From the NCBI GenBank assembly GCA_012730045.1, contig JAAYBR010000059.1, forward strand, positions 1-55,480: DNA of 55,480 nucleotides, read 5' to 3'. Each line of letters opens with the position of its first letter. Position 1 is the first letter of the stretch. The notes under the pieces were generated by a model. It worked only from the letters and a program-made list of their open reading frames with translations. It made no database searches and was not told the origin of the DNA. Both the position numbers and the translations under genes were made by a program. Shown here piece after piece: positions 34,701 through 37,799 of this stretch. The DNA is from Candidatus Hydrogenedentota bacterium. GTDB taxonomy: Bacteria; Hydrogenedentota; Hydrogenedentia; Hydrogenedentales; CAITNO01.

Positions 34701-35142
34701 CCGTGTGCTGGACGAGAGCGACTTCGACCCGCAACAGCGGGAGGCGCTGCGCGCCCAACTGGCGCGCATGGCCGAACGCTTCCGGGAGGACCCGCTCCAC
34801 GCGCGCCTCGCCGCCGACGCGGCGTTCCGCCGCGAACTGCCCTTCCTGCTTCCCTTCGAGGGGCACCTGATCCGGGGAACCATTGATGCCCTGCTCGGCG
34901 ACAGCACAGTACTCGACTACAAGACCGGCGCGCCGAACGCGGAAAAGCTCGAGCGCTACGGCCTCCAACTGGCCCTCTACGCCGAGGCCGTGCGCCAGGT
35001 GACCGGCGCCGCGCCGGAAGAGGGCCTCCTCTACTTCGTGGACCGCGCCCTCATCGAACGCGTGCCCCTCGGCCCCGGGCCCATCGCCGCCGCCATGGAG
35101 CGCGTCCGTCAAGTCCTCCAAGAGCGCGGGCGGCGGAATTGA
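31720..35142 (+). CDS. addA: AddA-type UvrD helicase/nuclease subunit
   Basis: The start at 31720 overlaps the addB stop by four bases. The 1140-residue protein is a superfamily 1A helicase: Walker A AGAGSGKT (Lys28), motif Ia TFADKAAAEMK, Walker B LLVDEFQDTD, GDAKQSIYLFRGA, DTNFRS, motif V TIHASKGLEFPVVF and motif VI LLYVAMTRARDHL. The C-terminal RecB-type nuclease has GTIDALLGDSTVLDYKTG with Asp1066 and Lys1068. Together with AddB it resects broken DNA ends for RecA. A composition change begins directly after its stop codon. Confidence 0.95.
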   Translation: MNFTPEQEQAITGTARRICVSAGAGSGKTRILIERMLRLLDSPELWPEKRPRLDGIVALTFADKAAAEMKARLRRGFAEKAKTATGDARKFWRELVREADGARASTIHSFCASFLRENALRLGLSPDTGVLSDAENALLKERVVAEVLDELLEAGDAGAAALYVEYGGKRLKDALRSAIGQRTALRDIAARTPDNATPEALVEEWKRVAGAVFDRETLALASPAALGPALAELKALETCVLYENDGRAKRLQHAVALLERVLAPGAEPGIIREALAELGKAGDYSPKASDKKWTDRASYERANTLLNNLHKRFQKIALLDAEGDPQMELETARRTLDFLSIAERVIARFAERKAALECQDFDDQIDQTRRILAEDGELRARTARGIAFLLVDEFQDTDRAQLEIANLLCDTPGGPSLFIVGDAKQSIYLFRGAEVGVFRQAGTAADQRVALDTNFRSTPGVLEFINDFFRKTGLLAAVEDYGGMKTHRPAAGRSAVEFLLPPDTEEKTKAEEAHKTEAAFIAARIREMVHGPEPLTVGDPEDRQPVRYGNIALLFRRFTQVHHYEEALRAADIPYCLGAGRSFYTRQEVLDVLHLLQTACDPWNETALLCFLRGPFAALSDDTLARMAMADPRKGGLARVFHGGQTPTGFPGADRLARARELLRRVRELRGDPPGPALRRALELSGAEAVCLGQYQGMQKASNLRKLVAVADEFSPRLPATLADFVRYLDDVRDRAVQEGDANLQTGGGDAVLVMTIHASKGLEFPVVFLPDLCPQKRGKNASGPLHLHRDLGAVMGAGDLEEKDDDTAKPVLVRAIQLATGRGEDEESARLLYVAMTRARDHLVLCGRGDAGGDTWFGRFNEAYSLADRKHGSEIVKDGWKAVVHREMPAPCGPAPQPDRGETPDLDALRRRIAPFAVPERAGATVSVSAVLNWILGGEGGAEKDAGDHTRDTAGAETPPAPPDQEFAMDRGTAVHRFFELWDFAGDNADLPDRVLDESDFDPQQREALRAQLARMAERFREDPLHARLAADAAFRRELPFLLPFEGHLIRGTIDALLGDSTVLDYKTGAPNAEKLERYGLQLALYAEAVRQVTGAAPEEGLLYFVDRALIERVPLGPGPIAAAMERVRQVLQERGRRN

Positions 35143-35354
35143 TGGAGACGAGAAACAACACGAGTTCAAGTTCCGGTCAGTTCCTTTTGCGTATTATATA
35201 CGTATGTTTTTTCGTAGTATGTATCATGGACGTGTGACTTTTTTTATAAGACCTATAGAGAGGTGAAATGGCAAGACAGAGACATCGAAAAAAAACGTTG
35301 CAGATGCGCGCACTTAGAGGTACAATCAGGTTAGCCAACGCAGGAGGATATGAA
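35143..35354. other. AT-rich left end of the compositional island
   Basis: GC content falls sharply right after addA. The segment holds a palindrome CGTAT-TAT-ATACG (35190-35202) and T-rich runs. TATAAG at 35245-35250 could be a -10 box, but no convincing -35 is visible. An ATG at 35268 with GAGGTG upstream opens the frame that continues into the next gene. Confidence 0.5.
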
Positions 35355-35594
35355 ATGACCCGTTCCAGGAAAGATGATAGGATCGCTAGTCCGAAACAGA
35401 CTCCCAGCGAGTCGAAGATAGAAGCCTTGCTTCGAGACGCCATGCGGTACCCTGGAGTGGCAGATATCTTTGAAATCTGCAAGACCGCGCAGGAAGCGCA
35501 AGAATCTTACGCTGTCATCGCTGGTTCGAATGAGGAGGCATCACCAACGGTAACTTGGTCTGACACAACACGGGGCCGCCTGTGCTCATATTAG
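35355..35594 (+). CDS. Small unknown protein upstream of the Clp-fold protease
   Basis: I chose the ATG at 35355 because AGGAGG lies seven bases upstream, the best ribosome site of the island; the ATG at 35268 (GAGGTG nearby) would add a very basic 29-residue extension beginning MARQRHRKKTLQ and cannot be excluded. The 79-residue product is hydrophilic with a central predicted helical stretch (KIEALLRDAMRYPGVADIFEI). I recognise no family. It ends 18 bp before the protease gene, whose ribosome site lies in the gap, so the two are almost certainly cotranscribed. Base composition is foreign relative to the flanks. Confidence 0.6.
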   Translation: MTRSRKDDRIASPKQTPSESKIEALLRDAMRYPGVADIFEICKTAQEAQESYAVIAGSNEEASPTVTWSDTTRGRLCSY

Positions 35595-35612
35595 GATAGG
35601 GAGAGAAACAAT

Positions 35613-36599
35613 ATGCCAACGTGGGGAGGTATCCTGAAGGAGCTCCATAAAGCCCAAGAGGAGCCAGGTGAAGGGTCTGCATGGGATCGGGTGCGAAGGA
35701 AATACCTGATCCAGATGGCTGAAAAGACAAAGCGCCCCGTCATATTGTACGCAACTCGGTTTCTTCAAGGGAGTTTGCCAATCGACCCGAATCTTCTTTC
35801 AATCACAGATGAAGACATACAAGGTTTAATGGAGGTTGTCCACGAGTTGGAAGGCCCAAGCCTCGACCTTATTCTTCATAGCCCTGGCGGCTCCTTGGAA
35901 GCGGCTGCGGCATTTGTCAGTTATCTTCGGTCAAAGTATGACGACATTCGAGTTGTAGTACCAATGATGGCAATGTCAGCTGCATGCATGATTGCATGTT
36001 GTTCAAACAAAATACTGATGGGAAAGCACTCTTTCTTGGGGCCTATCGATCCACAATTGGTTCTCTCCACATCACTTGGCGTGCGAATGGTACCCGCTCA
36101 GGCAATTTTGGATCAGTTTGACTTGGCGTTACTTCAGTGCAAACAGGATAAGAATGCTCTCGCAGCCTGGGCTCCTATGCTATCACAATACGGGCCAGAT
36201 TTATTAGTGCAATGTCAAAATGCATCCCAACGATCCGAGCACCTCGTATGTAAGTGGTTACAGGAAAACATGTTCCAAGAAGAAGCCGATGCAAAAAAGA
36301 AATCTAAGCACATTGCTGAATGGCTTTCAGATCACAAGCAACACAAGAGCCACTCACGACATATAACGCGCGATGAATTAATAACAGAGGGCCTTTTTAT
36401 CGAAAGGCTCGAAGATGATCAGGAGCTTCAAGATATCGTCTTATCTGTGTATCACGCTGTAACACATACATTCTCCATGACTAATACAATAAAGATCATC
36501 GAAAACAACAAAGGGAGGGCATTTGTAAAATCTGCTATTCCTCCGCCACCAAAAACATCCTCACCGTCAATAAATCCCCAAAGAAACATTCCTGTCTGA
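35613..36599 (+). CDS. Clp-fold SDH-type serine protease
   Basis: The 328-residue protein matches the SDH (serine dehydrogenase proteinase) branch of the ClpP/crotonase fold: HSPGGSLEAA at 89-98 gives the oxyanion strand, MSAACMIACC places the nucleophile at Ser122, and GKHSFLGPIDPQ at 137-148 supplies the conserved LGPIDPQ segment that follows the active site. No signal peptide or membrane helix is visible, so a cytoplasmic protease is likely. GGAGAG lies seven bases before the ATG. It is encoded in AT-rich DNA unlike the neighbours, and probably forms an operon with the small gene before it. Natural substrates are unknown. Confidence 0.82.
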   Translation: MPTWGGILKELHKAQEEPGEGSAWDRVRRKYLIQMAEKTKRPVILYATRFLQGSLPIDPNLLSITDEDIQGLMEVVHELEGPSLDLILHSPGGSLEAAAAFVSYLRSKYDDIRVVVPMMAMSAACMIACCSNKILMGKHSFLGPIDPQLVLSTSLGVRMVPAQAILDQFDLALLQCKQDKNALAAWAPMLSQYGPDLLVQCQNASQRSEHLVCKWLQENMFQEEADAKKKSKHIAEWLSDHKQHKSHSRHITRDELITEGLFIERLEDDQELQDIVLSVYHAVTHTFSMTNTIKIIENNKGRAFVKSAIPPPPKTSSPSINPQRNIPV

Positions 36600-36668
36600 C
36601 CTATCACAGTGTTCTGTTTTCGATTTCCAGAATTTCCTTGAGTAATCGTGACGCATGTGGTATTCGTG

Positions 36669-37799
36669 TCACTGTATATCCTCGCCGGTGAGGTAGTACC
36701 AGGTGGTGTCGAAGCGGAAAAGCACGACGCCGCCGAGGGCGCTGATCTTGTCCACGGCGGGGTGTTCGGCAAGCAGTTTCTTGAAGGCATCATCGCCCCG
36801 GGAAAGGTTGGTGACCTTCTCGCCCGCGTAGCCCCGTTCCATCCATCCGTCCGGGGTCTGGAGGAATACCTTGCCTTCGACCACGCGGCCCAGCGCCACG
36901 CCGGGGCCAAAGGATCCGCCCGTGTCCGTGGGCTGGGGCTTGGGAGTGGCGGGGGACTGCGCCGGGGCGGGCGGACGGTCCTGTCCCGTGGCGGGGGCCG
37001 CCGGGGCGGCCGCAGGCGCGGGGGCGGGGGCGGTGGGCGTGGTCTGGCCCCGGCCCGCCTCCCCTTTCTCCGGCACGGCGGACTTGGACATCAAACTCCG
37101 GTTTCGGGAGACTGTCGGCGGGGCGCTTTGCTCCGCCGTCACGGCCTCGGCCAGGGGGGCGGCCTCCTGCGGGGCGGCGGGCGCCCCTCCCCCGCTTCCG
37201 GGGGCGGGCGGGGCGGATTGGGGCAGGGCTTCGGCCTGCGCCGGGTCCGCATCCGCAACGGTTTCCGCCGGGGCGGCGATGTCCTGGGCCGCCGCCGCGG
37301 GCACCGCCTTCGCCGCATCCTTCGGCGCCTCCTCCATCAGCATCACCGGAAAGACTTCGTTCTTTCCCCCCTCCGCCGCAGGCGTTTGGGCGGGCGCCTC
37401 CCCGGCCTGCCGCGCCATGAGCATCTCCGCGTCGCGCGGGGACCGGGCGGACTGCGTCTGGTAGAAGCACAGCGCGGCCATGCCCGCGCAGAGCATCACG
37501 GCGGCGGCGAGATACTGGGCGGGACTGCGCCGCTTTGGCACCTCGTCTGCCCCGCGAAACCGCACGGTCACCCGGGTGGGGGCGGCCTCGTCAATCTCGT
37601 GGAGCGTGTCGCGGACCAGCTCCCCGGGCGCTTCGGGGGCTGCCTGCCGAACCAGTTCGTCCACGCGGCGCATCTGGTCCAGGGCTTCGCGGAGTTCCGG
37701 CTGCTCCTCCAGCAGGCGCTCCACCGCGGCGCGGGCTTCGGGGTCCAGCTCGCCGTCCAGGTAGGCGGACAGTTGCTCGTGCAGTTCCGGGGAAATCAT
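36669..37799 (-). CDS. Membrane-bound anti-sigma-factor candidate
   Basis: The ATG at 37799 overlaps the TGA of the ECF sigma gene. The first 60 residues (MISPELHEQLSAYLDGELDPEARAAVERLL) have the helical layout of anti-sigma domains but lack the CxxC of the zinc-finger class. A single membrane helix lies at about 95-114. Residues about 115-300 are a low-complexity Ala/Pro/Glu linker, and the last 70 form a small domain with GRVVEGKVFLQTPDGW and FRFDTTWYYL. A role in holding the partner sigma factor at the membrane is inferred from position and layout. Confidence 0.8.
   Translation of the reverse strand: MISPELHEQLSAYLDGELDPEARAAVERLLEEQPELREALDQMRRVDELVRQAAPEAPGELVRDTLHEIDEAAPTRVTVRFRGADEVPKRRSPAQYLAAAVMLCAGMAALCFYQTQSARSPRDAEMLMARQAGEAPAQTPAAEGGKNEVFPVMLMEEAPKDAAKAVPAAAAQDIAAPAETVADADPAQAEALPQSAPPAPGSGGGAPAAPQEAAPLAEAVTAEQSAPPTVSRNRSLMSKSAVPEKGEAGRGQTTPTAPAPAPAAAPAAPATGQDRPPAPAQSPATPKPQPTDTGGSFGPGVALGRVVEGKVFLQTPDGWMERGYAGEKVTNLSRGDDAFKKLLAEHPAVDKISALGGVVLFRFDTTWYYLTGEDIQ

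What the first reader, a model, noticed from the sequence alone, without database searches (positions are those of the whole stretch)
35143..36668. AT-rich two-gene island with a Clp-fold protease next to addAB
The sequence shows a sharp fall in GC content exactly after addA, two cotranscribed ORFs with strong ribosome sites (small unknown protein, then an SDH-type serine protease with Ser122 in MSAAC) and a return to high GC after the second stop. Small-protein plus protease pairs in foreign DNA are a recurrent layout for toxin-antitoxin or defence modules; that role is an inference. No integrase, tRNA or flanking direct repeat is visible.
Basis: partly seen in the sequence, partly recalled or inferred. 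Interest (0 to 1): 0.65.

Follow-up and report, generated by a model that had tools for sequence, protein, structure and literature searches.

The report
Mobile two-gene protease module, likely antiviral
A 1.55-kb foreign insertion carries a tiny protein and a ClpP-like protease that travel together through bacteria, archaea and many prophages, apparently as an uncatalogued toxin-antitoxin-like antiviral module; the defence role is inferred, not shown.

Summary
A 1,549-bp AT-rich block (GC 0.46 against 0.69) sits between addA and an anti-sigma gene; a same-genus genome has these genes about 30 bp apart, an empty site. The block encodes a 79-aa protein and a 328-aa ClpP-fold SDH-type serine protease (PF01972; Ser122 aligns with catalytic Ser97 of 1510-N). 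Libraries give the small gene no family, but relatives of the protease in archaea, bacteria, phages and prophages nearly always have a 50-115 aa ORF just upstream (55 of 59 viral copies, 34% of control genes), and a leave-one-out profile recovers the window's small ORF as its only hit. Both genes of related pairs are under purifying selection. Pairs are optional prophage cargo, and one fills a slot inside the Hma defence operon of a methanogen whose relative with near-identical HmaA has the slot empty. In several prophages a terminator separates small gene from protease, which would keep the small protein in excess. Best reading: a mobile protease toxin with a small inhibitory partner, acting in antiviral defence. 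Coupling and mobility are well supported; defence is inferred; inhibition and the tail-in-active-site mechanism are hypotheses. Absent from PADLOC and from the papers searched.

The parts
35134..36682 (.). inserted AT-rich block (1,549 bp) where the empty site has about 30 bp
   Evidence: absent from G001:C1251, flanks 84% and 90% nt identical; GC 0.459 against 0.689
35355..35594 (+). small gene, 79 aa, proposed inhibitor/antitoxin or sensor
   Evidence: only significant hit of 796 window ORFs to a profile of 15 homologues, E 1.6e-5; same position as the small ORF of other pairs
35342..35347 (+). Shine-Dalgarno AGGAGG of the small gene
   Evidence: sequence
35418..35522 (+). helical core of the small protein (residues 22-56) with the family signature A-x-x-x-P-G
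   Evidence: P33 and G34 invariant in 16 small proteins; helices 17-29 and 35-56 in the model
35547..35564 (+). C-terminal strand TVTWSD (residues 65-70), proposed protease-binding tail
   Evidence: modelled as a strand in the read-through fusion, pLDDT about 71; tail motif not significant for the window by PSSM
35599..35603 (+). Shine-Dalgarno GGGAG of the protease
   Evidence: sequence
35613..36599 (+). SDH-type ClpP-fold serine protease, 328 aa
   Evidence: PF01972 7.6e-15, phrog_11747 2.7e-86; model pLDDT 95.4, pTM 0.91; ClpP VIA Z 13.8
35877..35891 (+). HSPGG motif (H89-G93), by homology the oxyanion-hole region
   Evidence: H89, G92, G93 invariant in 66 sequences
35976..35978 (+). catalytic Ser122 codon
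   Evidence: invariant; aligned with Ser97 of 1510-N, the position mutated in 6m4b (S97A)
36039..36056 (+). GPIDPQ motif (G143-Q148) with invariant D146
36351..36353 (+). invariant His247 codon, possible catalytic or structural residue
   Evidence: role not tested
36492..36494 (+). invariant Lys294 codon, possible catalytic or structural residue
   Evidence: role not tested

Best explanation
The block is a horizontally mobile two-gene module: a small protein and a ClpP-fold serine protease encoded side by side and probably cotranscribed. Shown: conserved linkage, mobility, purifying selection on both genes of related pairs, invariant catalytic serine. Inferred: it is an antiviral or prophage-competition device in which the protease is the harmful effector and the small protein, made in excess, holds it inactive. 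Hypothesis for the mechanism: the helical core of the small protein docks on the protease while its C-terminal strand lies in or near the substrate groove as a pseudosubstrate; infection depletes, displaces or modifies the small protein, and the freed protease cleaves host or phage proteins and stops phage production.
For: Linkage: the clade-A relatives read have the small ORF; 55 of 59 viral proteases against 97 of 283 control genes; leave-one-out homology. Real proteins: dN/dS 0.04-0.17 (small) and 0.01-0.03 (protease, where estimable) in related pairs. Mobility: empty site, patchiness, archaeal, bacterial and viral copies interleaved in the tree. Defence context: in Methanoregula G068 the pair lies between HmaA and HmaB; G257, with HmaA 95-99% identical, has no pair there, and G291 and G184 hold a SLFN_AlbA_2 gene in the slot; a type IIG-like gene ends 250 bp upstream of the protease in L011. 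Prophage cargo: 148 viral contigs; near the integrase in L025 and beside it in L029; optional between lysis genes and terminase in E. coli prophages. Inhibitor in excess: intrinsic terminator between the genes in 8 of 11 long gaps against 12 of 59 control gaps, with at least 3 different hairpins. Tail: strand at residues 65-70 in the fusion model.
Against: No activity or phage phenotype has been tested. The Hma context is probably one evolutionary event (two related Methanoregula), and many chromosomal copies sit beside housekeeping genes, not in defence islands. No PADLOC model matches. The tail motif is weak outside clade A and not significant for the window's own protein. The fusion model used a read-through stop with a 7-residue linker, which forces proximity, and gives no coordinates or PAE here, so the strand's partner is unknown. 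The terminator is seen in phage and prophage versions only, not in the window; its control may include some of the pairs, and six of the eight hairpins look like one lineage.
Confidence: 0.45

Rival explanations
1. The small protein is the dedicated substrate or activator of the protease, as in the STOPP/stomatin operon, where the ClpP-fold protease 1510-N cleaves the C-terminal region of its operon partner. Cleavage of the tail would release a signal; the pair would be regulatory rather than toxic.
For: 1510-N is the best sequence match in the PDB and a structural match at Z 13.2; [quoted passage not shown] the small protein's C-terminal strand is modelled with the protease present.
Against: The clade-A tail is Ser/Thr-rich, not hydrophobic; terminators between the genes suggest the small protein is needed in excess.
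Confidence: 0.25
2. A phage factor acting against the host or its defences, stranded in the chromosome after phage decay.
For: Many relatives lie in viral and prophage contigs.
Against: Chromosomal copies without phage genes beside them, including the window and an Hma operon; no phage gene in the block.
Confidence: 0.15
3. A phage head-maturation protease or other virion-assembly enzyme.
For: Similarity to head maturation proteases (NF045542 3.8e-10; phrog_94 5.1e-8).
Against: The E. coli prophage carrying the pair also encodes its own ClpP-like prohead protease/capsid fusion; related prophages lack the pair; positions vary and are mostly outside the capsid genes.
Confidence: 0.04
4. A decaying AT-rich remnant without function.
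For: Degraded copies exist in genomes of the phylum (G036, G035, G033).
Against: Both window ORFs are intact with good ribosome sites, catalytic residues are invariant, and related pairs are under purifying selection.
Confidence: 0.03

Closest known systems
SDH-type / ClpP-like serine proteases (PF01972; NCBIfam NF047768; phrog_11747)
   Same: ClpP fold, HSPGG, MSA and GPIDP motifs; the window passes PF01972 and matches phrog_11747 almost end to end
   Different: far below the NF047768 equivalog cut-off (67.7 against 250 bits); the linked small partner is not described in the libraries searched
STOPP/stomatin operon (PH1510/PH1511, protease 1510-N)
   Same: ClpP-fold serine protease encoded beside a protein whose C-terminal tail is, or may be, bound by it
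   Different: 1510-N is membrane-bound with a Ser-Lys dyad and a stomatin partner; here the partner is a 60-80 aa protein without a known family
Type II toxin-antitoxin modules
   Same: small gene first, larger gene second, overlapping or closely spaced, mobile and patchy
   Different: the second gene is a ClpP-fold protease; no recognisable antitoxin family; toxicity untested
Hma (helicase-methylase-ATPase) candidate defence system
   Same: in Methanoregula the pair is inserted between HmaA and HmaB
   Different: the pair is not an Hma component: it is absent from an operon with near-identical HmaA and is found elsewhere without Hma

Membership tests
SDH_protease PF01972 | profile match above gathering score | tested here: met
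   55.1 bits against 31.3, profile positions 73-160 of 286
SDH_protease PF01972 | catalytic serine in the ClpP-fold position | tested here: met
   Ser122 invariant and aligned with Ser97 of 1510-N
NCBIfam NF047768 Clp_like_SDH equivalog | score at or above the curated cut-off of 250 | tested here: not met
   67.7 bits for the window; 71.7-95.9 for four relatives
ClpP caseinolytic protease | ClpP fold | tested here: met
   VIA Z 13.8, rmsd 3.3, 172 residues aligned to 9p54_D; Foldseek E 2.3e-4 to 3q7h
ClpP caseinolytic protease | profile match to PF00574 above its gathering score | tested here: not met
   17.6 bits against 20.2
phage head maturation protease | is the carrier phage's prohead protease | tested here: not met
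   separate prohead protease/capsid fusion in the same E. coli prophage
toxin-antitoxin module | two linked genes, small protein plus larger protein, conserved together | tested here: met
toxin-antitoxin module | effector toxic and neutralised by the small partner | not testable with these tools
   needs expression experiments
toxin-antitoxin module | inhibitor made in excess | tested here: inconclusive
   terminator between genes in 8 of 11 long gaps, phage and prophage versions only
known anti-phage system | match to a PADLOC model | tested here: not met
   no match for either protein at E up to 10
known anti-phage system | protection against phage | not testable with these tools

The most novel reading that the evidence does not exclude
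An undescribed family of toxin-antitoxin-like antiviral modules in which the toxin is a ClpP-fold protease and a 60-80 aa protein blocks it by laying a C-terminal strand into the substrate groove, shared by bacteria, archaea and prophages.
Probability: 0.3. Interest if true: 0.8.

Novelty: new variant of a known kind. Interest (0 to 1): 0.6.

Why it matters
The protease is common (148 viral contigs in one scan, 42 of 5,426 complete E. coli genomes for one subtype), yet its partner gene had no PHROG in 9 of 10 members tested and was left unannotated in the E. coli record read. If the pair is an antiviral device, it adds a protease effector with a tiny regulator to the known repertoire, in both bacteria and archaea, and the E. 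coli prophage version can be tested directly in a laboratory strain.

Tried and rejected
Head-maturation protease: rejected because the same E. coli prophage has its own prohead protease. Guarding of AddAB because of the neighbour: not supported, as other copies sit beside rho-like, sugar dehydrogenase and other unrelated genes. RNA element: no Rfam match. Integrase, tRNA or repeat-borne island: none found. Scanning viral contigs with the small protein: the alignment was not conserved enough, and a single sequence gave no relatives, so whether the small protein occurs without the protease is open. Tail motif as a universal signature: only a weak group-level signal. A mixed alignment with small-only rows misaligned them and was not used. 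Literature searches for this family as a defence or prophage factor found nothing relevant. Remote SDH proteases L004, L005 and L007-L009 score far lower and lack such a small ORF in the reading; they were left outside the family.

Full report
What is there. Comparison with G001, a same-genus genome in which addA and the anti-sigma gene are 84% and 87% identical in protein, fixes the block at 35134-36682; G001 has the two genes about 30 bp apart. There is no target duplication of 7 nt or more, integrase, tRNA or flanking repeat. A genome of the same order, G036, carries its relative on a contig of 100,915 bp, the same length as the contig of L022, recorded as Candidatus Hydrogenedentota, so the window probably comes from that group; this is an inference.

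The protease. It matches PF01972 above the gathering score, phrog_11747 (unknown function) almost end to end, and no PADLOC model. AlphaFold2 with 66 sequences gives pLDDT 95.4; [quoted passage not shown] A profile search aligns Ser122 with Ser97 of 1510-N, the position changed in the S97A structure 6m4b. Y46, H89, G92, G93, S122, D146, H247 and K294 are invariant in 66 sequences, consistent with an active enzyme; which residues complete the active site was not tested.

The small protein. No library names the window's copy. Relatives of the protease from archaea, bacteria, phages and plasmid-borne prophages have a short ORF directly upstream. In clade A these share an A-x-x-x-P-G helical core. 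A profile from 15 of them finds the window's ORF as its only significant hit among 796 window ORFs, E 1.6e-5. Of 59 non-redundant viral loci 55 have a 50-115 aa ORF ending at -90 to +45 nt, against 34% of control genes; of the exceptions read, L083 and L105 have one within a longer ORF and L097 appears to lack it. Related pairs show dN/dS of 0.04-0.17 for the small gene. One E. coli-type small protein is phrog_25714, unknown function.

Distribution. Near full-length relatives were found in 3 of 68 genomes of the phylum, in 9 of 393 and 4 of 398 genomes of two other phyla at E 1e-70 or better, in 148 viral contigs, and in 42 of 5,426 E. coli genomes for one subtype. The tree interleaves archaeal, bacterial and viral copies, though many inner branches are weak. 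Decayed copies occur in G036, G035 and G033.

Context. In Methanoregula G068 the pair lies between HmaA and HmaB on one strand; G257 has HmaA 99% and 95% identical in its two parts and goes straight into HmaB; G291 and G184 have a SLFN_AlbA_2 gene there and G246 a remnant. Hma was proposed as a candidate defence system in the PADLOC paper (PMC8565338). In prophages the pair occupies different accessory positions in different phages, and in E. coli prophages it is optional cargo between lysis genes and terminase. Other chromosomal copies sit among genes that look like housekeeping genes, so a defence context is real but not universal.

Expression and mechanism. In most loci the genes overlap or are closely spaced. 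Where the gap is long, 8 of 11 have an intrinsic terminator between them, all in phage or prophage copies and with at least three different hairpins; the control is 12 of 59 gaps and may contain some of the pairs. This would favour the small protein over the protease, as expected for an inhibitor. A read-through fusion of the window DNA (TAG read as Q) was modelled with 36 rows: the small protein forms two helices and a strand at residues 65-70. The proposed pseudosubstrate is therefore a hypothesis, encouraged by the 1510-N/stomatin precedent (PMC3795559). The Ser/Thr-rich tail is clear in clade A, weak in clade B (KS p 1.4e-5 overall, 16% of proteins individually below 0.05) and not significant for the window (p 0.66).

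Verdict. A conserved, mobile two-gene module is well supported. A role in antiviral defence or competition between mobile elements is the best inference. The inhibitor role and the mechanism remain to be tested.

Noticed in passing
35268-35354: An in-frame upstream ATG with its own good ribosome site (GAGAGGTGAA) would give a 108-aa form of the small protein.
   Followed up: partly
35207-35293: Imperfect 22-nt inverted repeat (73%) in the AT-rich leader before the small gene, possibly regulatory.
   Followed up: no
L196, L194, L192, L193, L195: The HmaA-HmaB junction of methanogen Hma operons behaves as an accessory-gene slot: empty, small gene plus protease, or a SLFN_AlbA_2 gene.
   Followed up: partly
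L019:8971-9783: A TIR-domain protein follows HmaB in the same Methanoregula operon.
   Followed up: no
L072, L074, L076, L083, L099, L100, L026, L090: Intrinsic terminators between the small gene and the protease; a phage antiterminator could in principle read through them and switch the protease on.
   Followed up: partly
L003 (G035) and L022 (G036): Decayed copies: an internal deletion just past the catalytic serine in G035, and two stop codons inside the protease frame in G036 while its small ORF stays open.
   Followed up: partly
L148:17630-18205: The small gene of the E. coli prophage pair is not annotated in the RefSeq record.
   Followed up: yes
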